Below are positions 4,826 to 48,775 of a stretch of 64,000 bases of DNA, piece after piece. Origin of the DNA: Loktanella atrilutea (GTDB lineage: Bacteria > Pseudomonadota > Alphaproteobacteria > Rhodobacterales > Rhodobacteraceae); NCBI RefSeq assembly GCF_900128995.1, contig NZ_FQUE01000001.1:248001-312000 (forward strand), read 5' to 3'. The notes beneath the pieces were generated by a model. The model saw only the letters and a program-made list of their open reading frames with translations. It did not search any database and was not told where the DNA came from. The translations under genes were made by a program, and so were the position numbers. Position 1 is the first letter of the stretch. Every line of letters begins with the position of its first letter.

Positions 4826-5302
4826 TCAAAGCGCGCGCACCGCCTCCAACACCGCGTCGACATGGCCCGGCACCTTCACCTTGCGCCAGATCCGCGCGAT
4901 CCGGCCGTCGGGGGCGATCAGGAAGGTCGATCGTTCGATCCCCATGAAGGTCTTGCCGTACATCTGCTTCTCGCCCCAGACGCCGTAGCGTTCGCAGACG
5001 TCGCCCTCTGCATCCGACAGCAGGGGAATGGCGATCTCGCGCTTGGCCACGAACTTGTCGTGCTTGGCGACCGGATCCTTGGACACGCCAAGGACCACGG
5101 CCCCCGCCGCTGCGAAATCCGGTTGGGCGGCGCTGAAATCCAGCGCCTCGGTCGTGCAGCCGGGGGTGTCGTCCTTGGGATAGAAGTAAAGGACGATCGC
5201 CTTGCCGGAGAAATCCGACAGGCTGACCGTGCCGCCGCCGTCGCGGGGCAAGGTGATATCCGGGGCGGCGTCGCCTTCGGACGGGCCGGTCGCTGACAGC
5301 AT
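4826..5302 (-). CDS. bcp: Peroxiredoxin, Bcp/PrxQ type
   Basis: A 158-residue cytoplasmic thiol peroxidase that reduces hydrogen peroxide and organic hydroperoxides. The thioredoxin-like fold shows LYFYPKDDTPGCTTEA, with the peroxidatic Cys at 49, and the family block YGVWGEKQMYGKTFMGIERS. The resolving Cys that many Bcp proteins have five residues after the peroxidatic one is a Leu (54). This copy therefore looks like the 1-Cys form, unless the second Cys (in EGDVCERYGVWG) takes part. It is divergent from the AsmA-like gene across a 93-base gap. Confidence 0.93.
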   Translation of the reverse strand: MLSATGPSEGDAAPDITLPRDGGGTVSLSDFSGKAIVLYFYPKDDTPGCTTEALDFSAAQPDFAAAGAVVLGVSKDPVAKHDKFVAKREIAIPLLSDAEGDVCERYGVWGEKQMYGKTFMGIERSTFLIAPDGRIARIWRKVKVPGHVDAVLEAVRAL

Positions 5303-5395
5303 GGTGATCCTCCTTGCGGATACGGGACGCGTTTCACGGGTTCAGTTCTAGCCCGCGACGGGCAAAGATAAAGGCGAAGAGGCCGAAAGCAGCGC

Positions 5396-8300
5396 ATGAC
5401 CGACCCCGACCCCGTCCAAGAGGCCAGACCGCGGCGCCGCACGCGCGGCGCAAGGCGTCGCAAGCGGTGGCACGCGGCGCGGGTTCTGGCCTATCTTCTG
5501 ACGCTGCCCGTGGTCTTCGGCCTGATGGCCGTCGTGATGATGTTCGACCGCGACATCACGGCACCCGGCTGGGTCACCGATCAGGTCGCGGCGCGGGCGG
5601 GCGGGCTGCTGGGCGGCGGCAGTGTCGATTTCGGGCAGATCGCGGTCCGGCTGGGACCGGACCTGCACCCGCGCGTCCGGCTGATCGACACGGTGCTGGC
5701 CGACGCGGACGGGCGTCCGCTGGCACGCATCGCGGAAATCGACGCCACCGTCAGCCCGCGCGGCCTGCTGTTCGACCGCACCGCGCTGGTGCAGCATGTG
5801 GCGTTGCGCGGCACCGCCGTGGCGCTGATCCGCGATGCGCAGGGGCGGCTGCAGCTGGCGTTCAACCTGCCTGACGGGGACCGTGGCGCCCTGCTGGCGG
5901 ACGGGCTGCCGGGGCTGGTGCGACAGCTCGACACCCTGCGCGACCGGCCCGCTCTCGCGGCACTTGAAAGCCTGACGCTGGCGGGGCTGGACCTGACCTA
6001 TGTCGACGCGCGGGCGGACCGGCGCTGGACAGCGACCGACGGTGGCTTCCAGCTGGCGATCGACGCTGACCGCACGACGGCCTCGGCGGATCTGGCGGTG
6101 GACGGCGCCGCGGGGCAGACGCGGCTCGCGCTCGCGCTGGACAGCCCGCGCGACAGCCTTGCGGCACGGCTGTCCGTCCGCGTGGACGGGGCAGAGGCGC
6201 GCGATCTGGCCAGCCAGTCCGCAGCGCTGCGCTTCCTCGGCGCCCTCGACGCGCCGCTGTCGGCGACGCTGGACACCGCGCTCGACCCCGATGGGATGCT
6301 GGGGCCGCTGCAGGCGACCCTGCAGGTCGGGGCGGGCGCGCTGCAGCCGGCGCCGGGCACCGTGCCGCTGCGGTTCCAGGAACTGACGGCGGCGCTGACC
6401 TACGATCCCGCGGGGCAAGAGCTGACCTTCGACGACGTGACCGTGGTCTCGGACTGGGGGCGCCTGCATGCCAGCGGGCAGGCGCTGGCGCGGGATTTCC
6501 GCCGCGGCCTGCCAGAGGCGCTGGTCGGGCAGCTGACGCTCGACCGGATCGCCCTGACGCCCGGCGACCTTTATCCCGCGCCGGTCACGATCGACCGGGC
6601 GGCCATCGACCTGAGGCTGCGGCTGGACCCCTTCCAGCTGGACGTGGGGCAGGTGACGATCAGCGATCCGAATTTGCGATTGAGCGTGGCAGGCCACCTG
6701 ACGGCGACGCCGCAGGGGTGGGAGGCCGCGATCGACGCGACCAGTCCGCGCCTTGCGACGCGCGATGTCCTGCGTCTGTGGCCCGAACGTCTGCGCCCCG
6801 GCACCCGGAAGTGGTTCGCGGAAAACCTGCTTGCGGGTCAGATGCGCGAGGTGACGGGGGGCTGGCGGATGGCGCCGGGGCAGAAGATGCGGATCGCCGC
6901 CGGTTTCGCCTTCGACGGCGCTTCGGCGCGTTTCCTGAAGGAAGAGCCGCCGATCACCGGTGGTGCCGGCTATGCCACGCTGTCGGACGGCGCCTTTGTG
7001 CTGCGGCTGGATCAGGGACAGGTGATCGCGCCGCAGGGCGGAGCGCTGAATGTCGCAGGGTCTGTGCTGCAGATTCCCGACGTCACGATCAAGAACGCAC
7101 CGATGGTGCTGGACATCGCGACCGCAGGCAGCATCACGGGCACCCTGTCGATCCTCGATCAGCCGCCGTTCCGCTATCTGTCCAAGGCTAATCTGCCGGT
7201 CACGCTGGCGGATGGCCGGGCCGCGGTCGCCGCGCATGTGGAACTGCCGCTGAAGCGCCCGATCCGCCCCGATGACGTGACATTCGATGCCACCGCGCGG
7301 CTGAGCCGGGTGCGAAGCGATACGCTGGTCAAGGGGCGGTCGCTGGCGGCAAGCGATCTGGCGGTGACGGTGGATCGCGGCGGTCTGCGGGTGAGTGGCG
7401 ACGCGACGCTGGACGGCGTGCCGGTGCGCGGCGACTTCAGCCAGATGTTCGGGCCGGGGGCCGACCCGACGCAGGTTGCGGGGCAGGTCACGATCACGCC
7501 GGACGCCCTCGACCGGTTCGGCATCGCCCTGCCACCCGGATCCGTCACCGGGTCGGGCCCGGGAGAGCTGACCGTCACCCTGCCGAAGGGCGAGGCCCCG
7601 CGCTTTGCCCTGACCTCGACGCTGGAAGGCCTTGGCCTGTCGGTCCCGGCGATCGGCTGGTCCAAGGCGCGGGGCACGGCGGGGCGGCTGGAGGTGTCCG
7701 GCACCCTCGGCGCCCAACCGTCCGTCGACAGCCTGCGCCTGCGCGCGCCGGGCCTGCAGGCGTCGGGGACCGTCAGCCTGACCGACGCCGGCCAGCTGGA
7801 GGCCGCGAGCTTTTCCGATGTCAGCGTCGGCGACTGGTTCAACGGCCCCGTCACCCTGCGCGGTCGTGGCAAAGGCCGCACCGTCGGGGTCGAGGTGCGG
7901 GGCGGCACCTTCGATCTGGCCAAGGCCGATCTGGGTGGAGGCGGTGCCGGGGCCAGCGGCGGCACGGGCGAAGGGGCGCCGATCCTCGTGCAGCTGGACC
8001 GGCTGAAGATCTCCGACGCTTTGGCACTGCGCAACTTCGCCGGCAATTTCAACACGACGGGTGGGTTCAACGGCACCTTCACCGGGCTGTTCAACGGACA
8101 GGCGGGGGTCGCGGGTGCCGTCTCTCCCTCTGGCGAGCGCACGGCGGTCCGCATCCATTCCGAGGATGCAGGGGCGGTGCTGCGCGCCGGGCCGTTCCTC
8201 GACGGCGCGCTGGGCGGCACGCTGGACCTGACGCTGTTTCCCGCCGCAGCACCGGGCAGCTTCGATGGCACCCTCGCGCTGCGAGGCCTGCGCGTGCGCG

Positions 8301-8713
8301 ATGCGCCGGCCATCGCGGAACTGTTAGACGCGATCAGCGTGGTGGGGCTGCTGCAGCAGCTGGACGGGCAGGGGCTGGCCTTCGACACGGTGGACGCGGA
8401 ATTCCGCCTGACACCGCAGCAGGTCATCGTCACGGAATCGAGCGCGGTGGGGCCGGGGCTTGGCATTTCGCTGGACGGCATCTACACGCTGGCCAGCCGG
8501 GCAGTGGACTTTCAGGGCGTGATCTCTCCGGTCTACATCCTGAACGGCATCGGCAGCCTGCTGACCCGCCGGGGCGAGGGGCTGCTGGGGTTCAACTTTA
8601 CCCTGCGCGGCACGCCGGGTGCGCCGCAGGTGAGTGTGAACCCGCTGTCGATCTTCACCCCCGGCATGTTCCGGGACATCTTTCGCCGCCCGCCGCCGGT
8701 GGTGACGAATTAG
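5396..8713 (+). CDS. YhdP/AsmA-like protein (DUF3971 type)
   Basis: A 1105-residue protein. A basic cytoplasmic N-terminus of about 28 residues is followed by one TM helix (about 30-50, VLAYLLTLPVVFGLMAVVMM), then more than 1000 residues of beta-rich repeating sequence. The C-terminal part contains the AsmA-like region (GGTLDLTLFPA, SVVGLLQQLDGQGLAFDTVDAEF) typical of YhdP and its relatives. Known members bridge the periplasm as hydrophobic grooves and affect phospholipid traffic to the outer membrane; that role here is by family. It is divergent from bcp and 24 bases upstream of queA, probably cotranscribed. Confidence 0.8.
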   Translation: MTDPDPVQEARPRRRTRGARRRKRWHAARVLAYLLTLPVVFGLMAVVMMFDRDITAPGWVTDQVAARAGGLLGGGSVDFGQIAVRLGPDLHPRVRLIDTVLADADGRPLARIAEIDATVSPRGLLFDRTALVQHVALRGTAVALIRDAQGRLQLAFNLPDGDRGALLADGLPGLVRQLDTLRDRPALAALESLTLAGLDLTYVDARADRRWTATDGGFQLAIDADRTTASADLAVDGAAGQTRLALALDSPRDSLAARLSVRVDGAEARDLASQSAALRFLGALDAPLSATLDTALDPDGMLGPLQATLQVGAGALQPAPGTVPLRFQELTAALTYDPAGQELTFDDVTVVSDWGRLHASGQALARDFRRGLPEALVGQLTLDRIALTPGDLYPAPVTIDRAAIDLRLRLDPFQLDVGQVTISDPNLRLSVAGHLTATPQGWEAAIDATSPRLATRDVLRLWPERLRPGTRKWFAENLLAGQMREVTGGWRMAPGQKMRIAAGFAFDGASARFLKEEPPITGGAGYATLSDGAFVLRLDQGQVIAPQGGALNVAGSVLQIPDVTIKNAPMVLDIATAGSITGTLSILDQPPFRYLSKANLPVTLADGRAAVAAHVELPLKRPIRPDDVTFDATARLSRVRSDTLVKGRSLAASDLAVTVDRGGLRVSGDATLDGVPVRGDFSQMFGPGADPTQVAGQVTITPDALDRFGIALPPGSVTGSGPGELTVTLPKGEAPRFALTSTLEGLGLSVPAIGWSKARGTAGRLEVSGTLGAQPSVDSLRLRAPGLQASGTVSLTDAGQLEAASFSDVSVGDWFNGPVTLRGRGKGRTVGVEVRGGTFDLAKADLGGGGAGASGGTGEGAPILVQLDRLKISDALALRNFAGNFNTTGGFNGTFTGLFNGQAGVAGAVSPSGERTAVRIHSEDAGAVLRAGPFLDGALGGTLDLTLFPAAAPGSFDGTLALRGLRVRDAPAIAELLDAISVVGLLQQLDGQGLAFDTVDAEFRLTPQQVIVTESSAVGPGLGISLDGIYTLASRAVDFQGVISPVYILNGIGSLLTRRGEGLLGFNFTLRGTPGAPQVSVNPLSIFTPGMFRDIFRRPPPVVTN

Positions 8714-44451: not shown

Positions 44452-44910
44452 GTGAAGGGCCTGCGCAAGAAGCGCCGCATTCAGGTGCTGGCGCTGTCCG
44501 GCGTCTGCATCGCCGCGGTCCTCGGCATCCTCGCCCTGCTGCCGTCCGAGTCTTTCCAATTCTTCCGTTCGCCCAGCGAAGTCGCTGCCGATCCGCCACG
44601 CGAGACGGAATTGTTCCGGATCGGCGGGCTGGTCGAGGACGGGTCCCTGACCCGCGGCGCGGGCACCGAGGTCACCTTCAAGGTAACGGACGGGGGGGCT
44701 TCGATTCCCGTGACATACACCGGCATCCTGCCGGATCTCTTTGCCGAGGGGCAAGGTATGGTGGGGCAGGGGCGTTACGTGAACGGGACATTCCAAGCTG
44801 TTGAAATACTTGCGAAACATGACGAGTCCTACATGCCGAAGGAGGTCGTCGACGCGCTGAAGGAACAGGGTGTCTATGTGGCACCGAACGCCGACGTCGC
44901 GACCAATTAA
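44452..44910 (+). CDS. ccmE: Cytochrome c maturation heme chaperone CcmE
   Basis: 152 residues with a GTG start (VKGLRKKRRIQVLAL). One N-terminal TM helix (about 10-30) anchors a periplasmic OB-fold domain. Heme is held through a His in ILAKHDESYMP (His123, with Tyr127), passed from CcmC to CcmF. Family marks RIGGLVEDGSLTR and YTGILPDLFAEGQGMVG are present. The gene is separated from ccmF by three lysis-type genes, which is unusual for a ccm cluster. Confidence 0.95.
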   Translation: MKGLRKKRRIQVLALSGVCIAAVLGILALLPSESFQFFRSPSEVAADPPRETELFRIGGLVEDGSLTRGAGTEVTFKVTDGGASIPVTYTGILPDLFAEGQGMVGQGRYVNGTFQAVEILAKHDESYMPKEVVDALKEQGVYVAPNADVATN

Positions 44911-44954
44911 CCAATCCATCCGACCCTTGCCGGCGACAGCACTGGCAGGGGAAG

Positions 44955-45569
44955 ATGATGCAGAGCGTGCAACAGATCGCCGTCGACATCGTGCGGCGCG
45001 AGGGGGGCTTCGTCGATGACCCCAACGATCCGGGCGGGGCGACGAACCACGGGGCGACGATCCACACGATGCGCCGTCTCGGCCTTGATCTGACCGGCGA
45101 CGGACGGATCGACACCGCCGACGTCCGCCGGTTGAGCGAGGCGCAGGCCGTCGCGATCTTCGTCCAGCATTACTTCGAGGCGCCGGGGATCGCGCGGCTT
45201 CCGGTCCCGCTGCAACCCAGCGTCTTCGACATGCATGTCAATGCGGGCATTCAAGCCGTCAAGATATTGCAGCGCCTTTTCAATGCCATGCGGGTCTTCG
45301 TTGACGTAGACGGTGTGATCGGGCCGAAGACCGCAGCGGCGGCAGGACATGCGATGGCGGCGGCCCCGGATCATCTGGGCGACGCCTACGGCATCGCGCG
45401 GCGCAACTACTATTACGCCTTGGCCGACAGTCGCCCGGCGTCTCGCCGCTATGCCCGGCGAAAGGACGGCGGCAAGGGCGGCTGGATCACGCGGGCAGAG
45501 GCGTTCATGGCGCCGCGCTATCGGCTGACGGAAGCGCAACATCGCGAACGGGTGGCACGATGGGGCTGA
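44955..45569 (+). CDS. GH108 N-acetylmuramidase (endolysin, GTA-release type)
   Basis: 204 residues, no signal peptide. The N-terminal glycoside hydrolase family 108 domain has the motif IVRREGGFVDDPNDPGG with catalytic Glu16, followed by ATNHGATIHTMRRLGLD. The C-terminal part resembles the peptidoglycan-binding domain that accompanies GH108 (VDGVIGPKTAAAAGH, YYALADSRPASRRYARR). It should cut the glycan chain once released through a holin. Its stop overlaps the holin start by 10 bases. Proteins of this pair serve gene-transfer-agent release in Rhodobacter capsulatus. Confidence 0.88.
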   Translation: MMQSVQQIAVDIVRREGGFVDDPNDPGGATNHGATIHTMRRLGLDLTGDGRIDTADVRRLSEAQAVAIFVQHYFEAPGIARLPVPLQPSVFDMHVNAGIQAVKILQRLFNAMRVFVDVDGVIGPKTAAAAGHAMAAAPDHLGDAYGIARRNYYYALADSRPASRRYARRKDGGKGGWITRAEAFMAPRYRLTEAQHRERVARWG

Positions 45570-46105
45570 TGGGCAGGGTGATGGGCTGGGCGCTGGGTCA
45601 GGGCGGCGGGCTGGTGCGGACGGTCGAGGCCTTCCGCGAAAATACCGAAAACGGGGCGGCGCGCGCATCCGACGAGAAGCGCGCGGCGCTGGAGCAGTTC
45701 GCGCGAGAGTTCGCGGGCCAGCGGGCGGGCCTGTTCGACAGGGTGATCGACGGGCTGAACCGCCTGCCGCGCCCAATGCTGGCGCTGGGCACGCTGGGGC
45801 TGTTCGTGTCCGCCATGACCAGCCCGGACTGGTTTTCCAGCCGCATGGTAGGCGTTGCGCTGATCCCGGAGCCCCTGTGGTGGCTGATGGGAGCGATCGT
45901 CAGCTTCTATTTCGGGTCACGCTATCAGGCGAAGGGGCAGGACTTTCAGCGCTCCGTCGCCGAAACCGTGCTGATGGGGCAGGCCTTGGCCGCTGACCGG
46001 GGGCGCACGGACCCGGCTGTCGCGCCCGCTTCGCCTGATGCACCGCAAGACTATGCCGACAACGCGGCGCTGGCAGACTGGTGGAGGCAGGCGGATGCAG
46101 ACTGA
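45560..46105 (+). CDS. Holin, GTA_holin_3TM family
   Basis: 181 residues. An amphipathic N-terminal part with an Arg/Glu-rich helix (about 30-68) is followed by two clear TM helices, about 72-88 (PMLALGTLGLFVSAM) and about 96-118 (MVGVALIPEPLWWLMGAIVS), and the motif YFGSRYQAKGQDFQ typical of the family (Pfam GTA_holin_3TM, formerly DUF3154). It should form membrane lesions that let the muramidase reach the wall. It overlaps the muramidase by 10 bases and the following small gene by 11, so the three form one translation unit. Confidence 0.85.
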   Translation: MGLMGRVMGWALGQGGGLVRTVEAFRENTENGAARASDEKRAALEQFAREFAGQRAGLFDRVIDGLNRLPRPMLALGTLGLFVSAMTSPDWFSSRMVGVALIPEPLWWLMGAIVSFYFGSRYQAKGQDFQRSVAETVLMGQALAADRGRTDPAVAPASPDAPQDYADNAALADWWRQADAD

Positions 46106-46298
46106 CTGGACCGCGACGGTCGAGAAGCGGCTGGTCGAGCTGGAGACCCACCACGCGGTGAATGCGGTGCATCGGATCAACGTGGCCGACCGGCTGCTGG
46201 CGATCGAGGATACGCTGAAATGGCTGGTCAGGCTGATCATCGGGGCACTGATCGTCGGCGGTGTGACCTATGCCATGCAGGGCGGGTTCCGGGTCTGA
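46095..46298 (+). CDS. Small XhlA-like membrane protein of the lysis cassette
   Basis: 67 residues from the ATG at 46095. A charged helix (EKRLVELETHHAVNAVHRIN, then VADRLLAIEDTLKW) leads into one TM segment (LVRLIIGALIVGGVTYAM). This layout, with the LEDTLKWLxRxxIGAxI-type junction, resembles phage and Bacillus XhlA proteins that help holins lyse cells. The start overlaps the end of the holin gene by 11 bases. No other role suggests itself; recognition is by pattern only. Confidence 0.7.
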   Translation: MQTDWTATVEKRLVELETHHAVNAVHRINVADRLLAIEDTLKWLVRLIIGALIVGGVTYAMQGGFRV

Positions 46299-46370: not shown

Positions 46371-48338
46371 ATGTTGATTGAACTCGCGCATTTCGCCCTG
46401 ATTCTCGCCTTTGGCGTCGCCCTTGCCCAGACGATCGTGCCGCTGATCGGGGCGCACAGGGGGTGGCGCGGCTGGATGGCCTTTGCCGATCCGGCCGCCA
46501 ACAGTCAGCTGATCCTTGTCGGCTTCAGCTTTGCGGTGTTGATGCACGCCTTCATCGTATCGGATTTCAGCGTGGCGCTGGTCTATGCCAACAGCCATAC
46601 GGCCAAGCCGCTGCTTTACAAGATCAGCGGCGTCTGGGGCAATCATGAAGGGTCGATGCTGCTGTGGGTGCTGATCCTGGCGCTGTTCGGCGCCTGTGCC
46701 GCGTGGTTCGGCGGCAACCTGCCAGAGACGCTGAAGGCGCGGGTGCTGGCGGTACAGGCCAGCATTTCCGTTGCCTTCTATGCCTTCATTCTCTTTACTT
46801 CGAACCCGTTTTTGCGGCTGACAGAGGCTCCGCTGAACGGGCGCGACCTGAACCCGCTGCTGCAGGACCCGGGCCTCGCGTTCCATCCGCCGTTCCTCTA
46901 CCTCGGTTACGTCGGCCTTTCGATGACCTTCAGCTTTGCCGTCGCCGCCCTGATCGAGGGGCGGGTCGATGCCGCATGGGGCCGCTGGGTGCGCCCCTGG
47001 ACGCTGGCGGCGTGGATGTTCCTGACCGTGGGCATCGCACTGGGATCATGGTGGGCCTATTACGAGCTTGGCTGGGGCGGTTTCTGGTTCTGGGACCCGG
47101 TGGAGAACGCGAGCTTCATGCCCTGGCTGATCGCGGCGGCGCTGCTGCATTCCGCCATCGTCGTGGAAAAGCGAGAGACGCTGAAAAGCTGGACGATCCT
47201 GCTGGCGATCCTCGCCTTCGGCTTTTCGCTGCTGGGCACGTTCATCGTGCGGTCGGGCGTGCTGACCTCCGTCCATGCCTTCGCCAATGATCCGGAACGC
47301 GGCGTATTCATCCTGCTGATCCTCGGCATCTTTCTCGGCGGGTCACTGACGCTTTATGCCGCGCGCGCGGGCGTGATGCAGGCGCAGGGTGCCTTCGGCA
47401 CGGTCAGCCGCGAAAGCGCGTTGGTGCTGAACAACATATTGCTGGCGGTCAGCGCCTTCGTCGTCTTCATCGGGACGATCTGGCCATTGGTGGCAGAGCT
47501 GGCCTTTGGCCGCACGCTGTCGGTCGGTCCGCCGTTCTTCGACGCGGCCTTCACGCCCTTCATGGTGCTGCTGGCCATCGTGCTGCCGCTGGGATCGCTG
47601 CTGGCGTGGAAGCGCGGCAGCCTGAGCCGCGCGCGGTTGCCGCTGGCGGGCCTGGCTGTGCTGTCGCTGGCGATGGCGGGGCTGTTCTATGCCATCTATG
47701 CCGGGCGGTCGCTGCTGGGACCGGCGGGTGTGCTGCTGGGCGTCTGGGTCGTCGGCGGTGCCGTGGTCGACCTGTGGCTGCGTGCCGGGCGCGGCGGCCT
47801 GTCGGACCGGCTGGGCCGGGTGATGCGCCTGCCGCGCGGCGACTGGGGCAAGACGGTGGCCCATGCGGGCATGGGGGTCACGATCTTCGGCGTGGCCGCG
47901 ATGACCGCCTGGCAACAGGAGGATATCCGTGTGGCGCAGGTGGGCGAGGGGTTCGACGTCGGGGCCTACCACTTCACGCTGGATGATGTGGAGAAGGTGC
48001 AGGGGCCGAACTATTCCTCGACCATGGCGACGGTGACGGCGGCCCGCGGCAAGGGTGCGCCGATCACCATGGTGCCGGAAAAGCGGTTCTATCCGGTGGC
48101 GCAGATGGCGACGACCGAAGCCGCGATTAAGAACGGTGTGCTGCGCGATCTTTACGTCGTGATCGGCGATCCGCAGACCGACGGCGGCTATGCGATGCGG
48201 GTCTACATCAAGCCCTTTGCCAACTGGATCTGGGGCGGCGCGATCCTGATGGCGATCGGCGGGCTGATCTCGCTCACCGACCGGCGGCTGCGCTTTGCGG
48301 TCGGTGCCCGGCGTGCGTCCACGGTGCCCGCGGAATGA
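46371..48338 (+). CDS. ccmF: Cytochrome c maturation protein CcmF
   Basis: 655 residues from the ATG at 46371, normal for CcmF. A polytopic membrane protein of the heme-lyase complex that attaches heme to apocytochrome c. The tryptophan-rich WWD motif WGGFWFWDPVENASFMPWL is complete, with surrounding His-bearing loops, and the C-terminal block VGEGFDVGAYHFTLDDVEKV belongs to the periplasmic domain. It follows the XhlA-like gene by 72 bases and overlaps ccmH by 4. Confidence 0.96.
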   Translation: MLIELAHFALILAFGVALAQTIVPLIGAHRGWRGWMAFADPAANSQLILVGFSFAVLMHAFIVSDFSVALVYANSHTAKPLLYKISGVWGNHEGSMLLWVLILALFGACAAWFGGNLPETLKARVLAVQASISVAFYAFILFTSNPFLRLTEAPLNGRDLNPLLQDPGLAFHPPFLYLGYVGLSMTFSFAVAALIEGRVDAAWGRWVRPWTLAAWMFLTVGIALGSWWAYYELGWGGFWFWDPVENASFMPWLIAAALLHSAIVVEKRETLKSWTILLAILAFGFSLLGTFIVRSGVLTSVHAFANDPERGVFILLILGIFLGGSLTLYAARAGVMQAQGAFGTVSRESALVLNNILLAVSAFVVFIGTIWPLVAELAFGRTLSVGPPFFDAAFTPFMVLLAIVLPLGSLLAWKRGSLSRARLPLAGLAVLSLAMAGLFYAIYAGRSLLGPAGVLLGVWVVGGAVVDLWLRAGRGGLSDRLGRVMRLPRGDWGKTVAHAGMGVTIFGVAAMTAWQQEDIRVAQVGEGFDVGAYHFTLDDVEKVQGPNYSSTMATVTAARGKGAPITMVPEKRFYPVAQMATTEAAIKNGVLRDLYVVIGDPQTDGGYAMRVYIKPFANWIWGGAILMAIGGLISLTDRRLRFAVGARRASTVPAE

Positions 48339-48775
48339 AGCGGCTGCTGCTGGTTCTGCTGCTGCTGGCGGCGCCCGTCTGGGCGGTCCAGCCGTCAGAG
48401 ATGCTGGCCGACCCTGTGCTGGAGGCGCGGGCGCGCGAGATTTCCGAAGGGCTGCGCTGTCCCGTCTGCCAGAACGAGAGCATCGACGAATCGAATGCCC
48501 CGATCAGCCACGACCTGCGCGTGCTGCTGCGCGAGCGGCTGGTGGCCGGGGATACGGATCAGGAGGTGGTCGATTTCCTCGTGGCCCGGTTCGGAGAGTT
48601 CATCCTGCTGGAACCGGATACCCGCGGCGCGAACCTGATCCTTTGGGCCGCGGCGCCGGTGCTGCTGCTGCTGGCGCTGCTGGTGGGCTGGGTCACGATC
48701 CGGCGGCGGACCCCGGCGGAGGAACCGCTGACCGAGGCCGAGCGGGCCGAGGTGGACCGCATTCTGCGTTCGTGA
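48335..48775 (+). CDS. ccmH: Cytochrome c maturation protein CcmH (CcmL type)
   Basis: 146 residues. A signal sequence is followed by the periplasmic redox domain with GLRCPVCQNESIDESNA, whose CxxC reduces apocytochrome c thiols, and a C-terminal TM anchor (LWAAAPVLLLLALLVGWVTI). Its ATG overlaps the ccmF stop. The separate TPR partner CcmI is not in the window. Confidence 0.95.
   Translation: MKRLLLVLLLLAAPVWAVQPSEMLADPVLEARAREISEGLRCPVCQNESIDESNAPISHDLRVLLRERLVAGDTDQEVVDFLVARFGEFILLEPDTRGANLILWAAAPVLLLLALLVGWVTIRRRTPAEEPLTEAERAEVDRILRS

What the first reader, a model, noticed from the sequence alone, without database searches (positions are those of the whole stretch)
44955..46298. Three-gene GTA-type lysis cassette nested between ccmE and ccmF
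A GH108 muramidase, a holin of the family named for gene-transfer-agent release and an XhlA-like membrane protein overlap each other and sit inside a cytochrome c maturation cluster on the same strand. In Rhodobacter capsulatus an endolysin/holin pair of these families frees GTA particles by lysing a few cells, and it is encoded away from the GTA structural genes. Here no other phage gene is present, so the cassette is probably a domesticated release module. Its placement would tie it to transcription of ccm genes unless it has its own promoter.
Basis: partly seen in the sequence, partly recalled or inferred. Interest (0 to 1): 0.7.

Follow-up and report, generated by a model that had tools for sequence, protein, structure and literature searches.

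The report
Gated lysis cassette inside ccm locus
Three genes of the kind that burst a cell to release virus-like gene-transfer particles sit inside a housekeeping gene cluster in this bacterium and, for the first two genes, in most relatives examined, apparently kept silent by a small RNA hairpin that hides their start signal unless a dedicated switch upstream is turned on.

Summary
In detail: a GH108 muramidase, a GTA-type holin and an XhlA-like protein overlap each other between ccmE and ccmF. The genome has a GTA head-tail cluster on the same contig (capsid gene frame broken) and one GafA-type gene. The placement is the family norm: of 149 genomes 144 have the muramidase, 127 of these directly behind ccmE. 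New here is the leader. An activator-type promoter pattern (CGNRCG, TTAACC, AnnnT) overlaps the end of ccmE, and a hairpin with unconserved but compensating arms hides the muramidase ribosome site; its 5' arm lies between the -10-like box and the predicted start, so only ccm read-through RNA should form it. That is the layout of the phage T4 lysozyme gene e gate. I infer a gate that lets a suicide cassette live inside a housekeeping operon. Against a purely GTA role: 14 of 15 genomes without a GTA portal keep muramidase and holin. The start was not measured, and the phylogeny-controlled hairpin test is underpowered.

The parts
44452..44910 (+). ccmE (host gene whose 3' end carries part of the promoter pattern)
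   Evidence: CcmE domain E 2.8e-31
44885..44890 (+). CGNRCG box (here CGAACG), 22 bases upstream of TTAACC; activator-site candidate
   Evidence: present in 41 of 45 anchored loci where it lies inside ccmE and 11 of 16 where it lies after the ccmE stop or away from ccmE; background 0.2% of 6710 positions
44907..44912 (+). TTAACC, CtrA half-site-like, overlaps the ccmE stop codon
   Evidence: TTAAC 30-80 nt upstream of the muramidase in 61 of 79 loci; in 1 of 30 viral copies
44922..44927 (+). -10-like hexamer GACCCT (A at position 2, T at position 6)
   Evidence: A at +16 with T at +20 from TTAAC in 55 of 61 anchored loci; next best offset 5 of 61
44924..44933 (+). 5' arm of the hairpin (overlaps the -10-like box, ends before the predicted start)
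   Evidence: RNA fold -21 kcal/mol, z -3.86; arm-swap test
44934..44941 (+). loop; predicted transcription start about 44934
   Evidence: inferred, 27 bases after TTAAC; not measured
44942..44951 (+). 3' arm of the hairpin, contains the Shine-Dalgarno stretch GGGG
44955..45569 (+). N-acetylmuramidase, GH108 + PG_binding_3, 204 aa
   Evidence: PF05838, PF09374; NF040573
45560..46105 (+). holin GTA_holin_3TM, 181 aa
   Evidence: PF11351 E 1.8e-24
46095..46298 (+). XhlA-like small membrane protein, 67 aa
   Evidence: PF10779 E 2.8e-9; phrog_1193 hemolysin
46371..48338 (+). ccmF
   Evidence: CcmF_C E 5.4e-111
48335..48775 (+). ccmH
   Evidence: CcmH E 2e-47

Best explanation
This is the Rhodobacteraceae GTA-release lysis cassette (the rcc00555/rcc00556 kind) at its usual, probably ancestral place behind ccmE. 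Shown: gene content, place, conserved leader elements, compensating hairpin arms. Inferred: when the cell is not making GTA, RNA polymerase reading from ccmE towards ccmF copies the whole leader; the RNA folds a hairpin that buries the muramidase ribosome site, and the holin and XhlA genes, which overlap head to tail, are not translated either, while ccmF can still be transcribed. When GafA and phosphorylated CtrA are active they fire a promoter at the ccmE end whose start lies in the hairpin loop; that RNA lacks the 5' arm, its ribosome site is free, and muramidase, holin and XhlA are made and lyse the cell. It works like the phage T4 lysozyme gene e gate.
For: Leader elements at fixed spacing. 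Hairpin: median z -2.41, 61 of 78 loci below -1, against medians 0.22, 0.05, 0.14 and -0.38 (9-31% below -1) at four control places. Own arms pair better than swapped arms in 50 of 55 loci, p 2.7e-9; control place 29 of 55. Median cost of opening the ribosome site 15.1 kcal/mol in read-through RNA, 6.4 from the predicted start, 61 loci; gap over 3 in 84%, controls 23-33%. Hairpin median z -2.33 where the cassette adjoins ccmE (106 loci), -0.13 where it has moved (23), p 1.8e-4 without phylogenetic correction; viral copies -0.30, 30 of 33 loci. Muramidase-holin overlap of 10 bases in 73 of 79 loci. Published: GafA binds the lysis promoter and CtrA is needed for endolysin induction (PMC6363796, passages); putative CtrA half-sites at all three late RcGTA loci, GafA sites at two (PMC9638019, passages); endolysin and holin in the RcGTA co-expression module (PMC4158056, passages).
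Against: No transcription start was measured; the -10 assignment rests on conservation alone, and the consensus scanner finds no sigma-70 promoter. TTAACC would lie between -35 and -10, an unusual place for CtrA (recalled). The phylogeny-controlled test has only 4 supported pairs (at the z threshold of -1: 2.2 agree, 0.0 oppose, 1.8 do not differ; other thresholds 0.8-1.3 agree, 0.1 oppose) and is not significant. 7 of 23 detached cassettes still have z below -1; in one genus three detached genomes (two of them alike in the leader) have -4.3 to -5.4; and about a fifth of the loci next to ccmE have no clear hairpin. The strict promoter pattern was not found at the GTA clusters or gafA region scanned. 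TTAAC is missing in 18 of 79 loci.
Confidence: 0.6

Rival explanations
1. Same cassette and own promoter, but the inverted repeat acts otherwise: as an attenuator, an mRNA-stability element, or a brake on the dedicated transcript itself (start upstream of the hairpin), to time lysis late.
For: Start site unmeasured; 7 of 23 cassettes detached from ccmE keep z below -1.
Against: Hairpin is weaker on average where the cassette has left ccmE and in viral copies; no T-run follows it in the window and the two terminator-like hits lie inside ccmE and inside the holin gene. The conserved A and T place the predicted start after most of the 5' arm.
Confidence: 0.25
2. The cassette is no longer, or not only, a GTA-release device but a GafA-linked programmed-lysis module kept for another benefit (nutrient or DNA release). 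It can hold together with the RNA gate.
For: 14 of 15 genomes without a GTA portal keep the muramidase, 14 of 14 of these keep the holin, 15 of 15 keep the GafA-type gene; muramidase dN/dS 0.04-0.11 among three GTA-portal-less genomes of one genus. The window genome's own capsid gene is frame-broken.
Against: Most genomes sampled have both; 3 genomes have GTA genes but neither muramidase nor holin; the GTA losses in the held genomes could not be checked in an independent copy.
Confidence: 0.25
3. Remnant or recent capture of prophage lysis genes.
For: 33 viral contigs encode relatives at 37-70% identity, 21 of 33 with a holin match beside it; one group of three viral rows branches with four chromosomal rows (84/74); Sulfitobacter phages carry an XhlA relative at 49%.
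Against: Place conserved in 127 of 144 genomes; window protein in an all-chromosomal clade; muramidase distances follow argC, Mantel r 0.42, p 0.001, 65 loci; no viral locus held (up to 3 kb flanks) has ccm genes.
Confidence: 0.04

Closest known systems
RcGTA endolysin/holin rcc00555-rcc00556 of Rhodobacter capsulatus (Dshi_1756/1757 in Dinoroseobacter shibae)
   Same: Muramidase plus holin pair apart from the GTA head-tail cluster, in a genome with a GafA-type gene.
   Different: Third XhlA-like gene, nesting between ccmE and ccmF, promoter pattern at the ccmE end and ribosome-site hairpin are not in the passages I saw. R. capsulatus and D. shibae were not compared by sequence.
Phage T4 lysozyme gene e translational gate
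   Same: Long transcripts form a helix that hides the ribosome site; transcripts from promoters immediately upstream lack the 5' part and are translated; guards against premature lysis (PMC3014915, passages).
   Different: Here on a bacterial chromosome, in a housekeeping operon, with an activator-type promoter pattern instead of T4 late promoters; no sequence kinship tested.
XhlA/XhlB lysis modules of Bacillus PBSX (recalled)
   Same: XhlA domain protein beside a holin and a cell-wall hydrolase.
   Different: Holin matches GTA_holin_3TM, not XhlB; the XhlA gene is found by tblastn in 28 of 79 loci only.
LypABC of Caulobacter GTA
   Same: Dedicated GTA lysis control (PMC13236601, passages).
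   Different: CARD-NLR-like immune-type system; that paper reports no holin-endolysin homologues in Caulobacter.

Membership tests
GTA-type lysis cassette (rcc00555/556 kind) | GH108 muramidase of the holin-associated type | tested here: met
   NF040573 342.2 bits, cut-off 240
GTA-type lysis cassette (rcc00555/556 kind) | adjacent holin of family PF11351 | tested here: met
   E 1.8e-24
GTA-type lysis cassette (rcc00555/556 kind) | GTA head-tail cluster in the same genome | tested here: met
   terminase, portal, protease, capsid, connector, head and tail genes to the TIM-barrel protein in order; capsid frame broken
GTA-type lysis cassette (rcc00555/556 kind) | GafA homologue in the genome | tested here: met
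   one DUF6456 protein, 359 aa; N-terminal HTH matches below their cut-offs
GTA-type lysis cassette (rcc00555/556 kind) | controlled by GafA and CtrA | tested here: inconclusive
   CtrA half-site-like TTAACC and a second conserved box; binding not testable
GTA-type lysis cassette (rcc00555/556 kind) | needed for GTA release | not testable with these tools
   needs a knockout
T4 gene e-type translational gate | helix over the ribosome site in long transcripts | tested here: met
   (prediction and compensation, not probed)
T4 gene e-type translational gate | dedicated start inside or after the 5' arm | tested here: inconclusive
   predicted from the conserved A and T; median 77% of stem pairs have their 5' base upstream of the predicted start, 61 loci
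T4 gene e-type translational gate | large drop in translation of the long transcript | not testable with these tools
   needs reporters
XhlA/XhlB lysis module | XhlB-type holin partner | tested here: not met
   only PF11351 matches the holin at E 0.01

The most novel reading that the evidence does not exclude
A T4 gene e-style RNA gate has evolved, and turned over in sequence many times, on a chromosomal suicide cassette so that it can live inside a housekeeping operon; in lineages that lost the GTA particle genes the GafA-linked cassette is kept under purifying selection as a stand-alone programmed-lysis module.
Probability: 0.35. Interest if true: 0.8.

Novelty: new variant of a known kind. 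Interest (0 to 1): 0.6.

Why it matters
It offers a concrete, testable answer to how a lethal lysis operon can stay silent inside a transcribed housekeeping operon, and suggests that GTA release is gated at the RNA level as well as by GafA and CtrA. It also questions whether GafA plus lysis genes exist only for GTA release, since both outlast the particle genes in the genomes examined.

Tried and rejected
Prophage remnant: rejected by place conservation and muramidase tree. Intrinsic terminator between ccmE and the muramidase: none in the scan, whose two hits lie inside ccmE and inside the holin gene, 1.0 expected by chance. Same promoter pattern at the GTA cluster or gafA: no match to the strict pattern in the pieces scanned; the own gafA upstream region has a TTAA-N7-TTAA site. 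The strict pattern matches 6 of 14 cassettes of GTA-portal-less genomes; others show looser TTAA boxes. GTA presence predicting cassette presence: failed. Phylogeny-controlled hairpin test: underpowered. A first box count used a wrong offset and gave zero; corrected. Fused terminase/tail junction in viral contigs: nothing. Papers not held: Hynes 2016 and Westbye 2013. Scripts that failed: and after part of its output; rerun.

Full report
Observation. Muramidase 44955-45569, holin 45560-46105, XhlA-like 46095-46298, all on the + strand between ccmE and ccmF, with ccmH after. NCBIfam already has an equivalog for the muramidase, 'holin-associated N-acetylmuramidase'. The holin matches no PHROG and no NCBIfam model at E 0.01.

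Genome. The window lies on a 1.06 Mb contig. The GTA_TIM gene is on the same contig; around it lie terminase, portal, prohead protease, capsid, connector, head completion, tail completion, tail tube, DUF2460, hub and TIM-barrel tail genes in order, with two open frames that match nothing above cut-off; the terminase is about 267 kb from the cassette. The capsid gene reads as two overlapping open frames, both matching PF05065, with the break near a short G run; a sequencing error is not excluded, and whether this strain can make particles is open. One DUF6456 protein of 359 aa, with N-terminal HTH matches below their cut-offs, is the GafA candidate; a TTAA-N7-TTAA site lies upstream of it, in line with CtrA control of gafA in R. 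capsulatus (PMC6363796, passages). G144, marked as the same genus as the window, has the same GTA_TIM place as the genome holding locus L004, Loktanella salsilacus, so the window is from that genus.

Placement. Among 149 genomes drawn from the order (completeness at least 95; all in the window's family), 144 match the muramidase model, 143 above its cut-off, and 148 have ccmE. In 127 of the 144 the muramidase match starts less than 2 kb downstream of the ccmE match on the same strand. Of 81 loci with named or own records (80 best of at least 518 relatives, plus the own genome), ccmE was found in 76 and ccmF in 51; some pieces are cut by contig ends. So the site is widely shared and probably ancestral; ccmF is next door in part of the family only. 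In 79 measurable loci (2 of 81 ran off an end) the muramidase is 204 aa in 78 and overlaps the holin by 10 bases in 73. The XhlA-like gene is found by tblastn in 28 of 79, each with ccmF downstream; in six loci (L052, L061, L068, L072, L079, L081) the third slot holds another small membrane protein, with a sub-threshold BhlA match for the one tested.

Leader. TTAAC occurs 30-80 bases upstream of the muramidase in 61 of 79 loci. Anchored there, a CGNRCG box sits 22 bases upstream: in 41 of 45 loci where that place is inside ccmE and in 11 of 16 where it is not, against 0.2% of 6710 background positions. As it survives outside the coding region it is a DNA element, and the ccmE tail seems partly written by it. 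Downstream, A at +16 with T at +20 is present in 55 of 61, the next best offset having 5: the signature of a -10 hexamer. The start is predicted near +27. That TTAACC is a CtrA half-site and CGNRCG a GafA site is inference; published work reports putative CtrA half-sites at all three late RcGTA loci and putative GafA sites at two of three (PMC9638019, passages), but I could not see its figure.

Hairpin. In the window the RNA folds 44924-44933 with 44942-44951, -21 kcal/mol, z -3.86; the Shine-Dalgarno stretch is in the 3' arm. Over 78 loci the median z of the 39 bases before the start is -2.41, with 61 below -1; four control places give medians of 0.22, 0.05, 0.14 and -0.38, with 9-31% below -1. 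The arm sequences differ widely between loci, yet own arms fit: -16.3 kcal/mol against -10.9 when 3' arms are swapped, own better in 50 of 55 (the anchored loci next to ccmE with usual spacing), p 2.7e-9; at a control place inside the gene 29 of 55. A median of 77% of stem pairs have their 5' base upstream of the predicted start (61 loci). Opening the ribosome site costs a median of 15.1 kcal/mol in read-through RNA and 6.4 in RNA from the predicted start (61 loci), a gap over 3 in 84%, against 23-33% at four control places.

What the hairpin goes with. Detached means not within 2 kb in the 149-genome set, or more than 200 bases away or without ccmE in the named loci. TTAAC is present in 89 of 106 and 14 of 23. 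Among 65 ccmE-adjacent loci with enough sequence, those with ccmF downstream have stronger hairpins (47 loci, -2.98) than those without (18 loci, -1.86; p 0.024). In 30 of 33 viral copies (the rest too short upstream or duplicates) the median is -0.30 and TTAAC occurs in 1. Related loci are not independent: a tree-based test found only 4 well-supported independent pairs, about 2.2 in agreement, 0.0 against, 1.8 alike, not significant, and weaker at other thresholds. Three detached genomes of one genus, two with the same leader, keep strong hairpins.

Mechanism. The simplest reading is insulation. Read-through RNA from ccmE hides the ribosome site of the first gene, and the overlapping holin and XhlA genes depend on its translation; a start in the loop frees it. 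The T4 lysozyme gene e works this way, with a 100-fold drop from long transcripts (PMC3014915, passages). Shown here: elements, predicted pairing, compensation, association with ccmE. Inferred: start site, activators, translational coupling, and that ccm read-through exists.

GTA dependence. GTA_TIM matches occur in 143 of 149 genomes, 11 of them weak (E 1e-25 to 1e-39), none in 6. I checked 25 genomes for the GTA portal, including those 17: 15 of the 17 lack it apart from one 23% match. Of these 15, 14 keep the muramidase, all 14 of these keep the holin and 15 of 15 keep the GafA-type gene; g12 was absent in all 15, but also in G001, G091 and G145, which have a portal match. Conversely G081, G141 and G145 have GTA genes but neither muramidase nor holin of these families; G013 lacks the muramidase and also ccmE, so a gap is likely there. 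Among three portal-less genomes of one genus muramidase dN/dS is 0.04-0.11. So the cassette is not strictly tied to the particle genes. The caveat is that I could not check these losses in an independent copy: L005 resolves to the same data as G102. In that of 20 genomes reached through named loci had no GTA_TIM match (those of L010, L014 and L074).

Relatives. In the annotated phage set 360 records match the muramidase, all below 60%; the 15 listed are at most 34.6% identical. The holin has no match there and XhlA has 49% in Sulfitobacter phages. In IMG/VR 33 contigs carry closer copies, 37-70%, none with ccm genes in the up to 3 kb flanks held. In a tree of 72 rows (40 of 79 chromosomal, 32 of 33 viral) the window is in an all-chromosomal clade of 23 (95/85); viral and chromosomal labels need 4 changes against 23.7 when shuffled; one viral trio branches with four chromosomal rows (84/74), and the backbone is unresolved. 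Muramidase and holin distances follow argC (Mantel r 0.42 and 0.39, p 0.001, 65 loci).

Literature. No held paper joins 'gene transfer agent', 'ccmF' and 'holin'. The 3 papers with 'ccmE' and 'endolysin' are on other subjects by title; so are two of the 3 with 'gene transfer agent', 'endolysin' and 'hairpin', the third being a holin and spanin review that I did not open. Of two papers with 'cytochrome c maturation', 'gene transfer agent' and 'lysis', one lists ccmE among 14 families whose translational-efficiency trend follows GTA genes and explains it by stress expression (PMC9765227, passages); physical linkage to the lysis cassette, seen here in Rhodobacteraceae, is another possible reason, untested. 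Many subscription papers are not held, so absence here is weak evidence of novelty.

Noticed in passing
A tree of 28 rows places them with full-length copies of their own genus in the five genera where I had both (8 changes, at least 6 forced), so the same large loss seems to have recurred; short imperfect similarity exists at both ends. Natural recurrence or a data artefact is undecided.
   Followed up: partly
L083:8868-10050 (own genome, GTA cluster): The GTA major capsid gene reads as two overlapping open frames, broken near a short G run; sequencing error not excluded.
   Followed up: partly
L052, L061, L068, L072, L079, L081, after the holin: The third slot holds a different small membrane protein (sub-threshold BhlA match for the one tested), so the accessory gene differs between lineages.
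   Followed up: partly
L086 about 5000-8500 (outside the window): Downstream of the gafA candidate a minus-strand open frame shows a repeated peptide pattern, suggesting a tandem repeat array.
   Followed up: no
window 44452-44910 and relatives: The C-terminal tail of ccmE appears shaped by the promoter box inside it; ccmE is also in a published list of families with GTA-like codon-bias trends.
   Followed up: partly
G081, G141, G145: GTA genes present but no muramidase or holin of these families: another release mechanism is implied.
   Followed up: no
Paracoccus records H23-H27: Muramidase at 62-63% identity on large Paracoccus replicons listed as plasmids.
   Followed up: no
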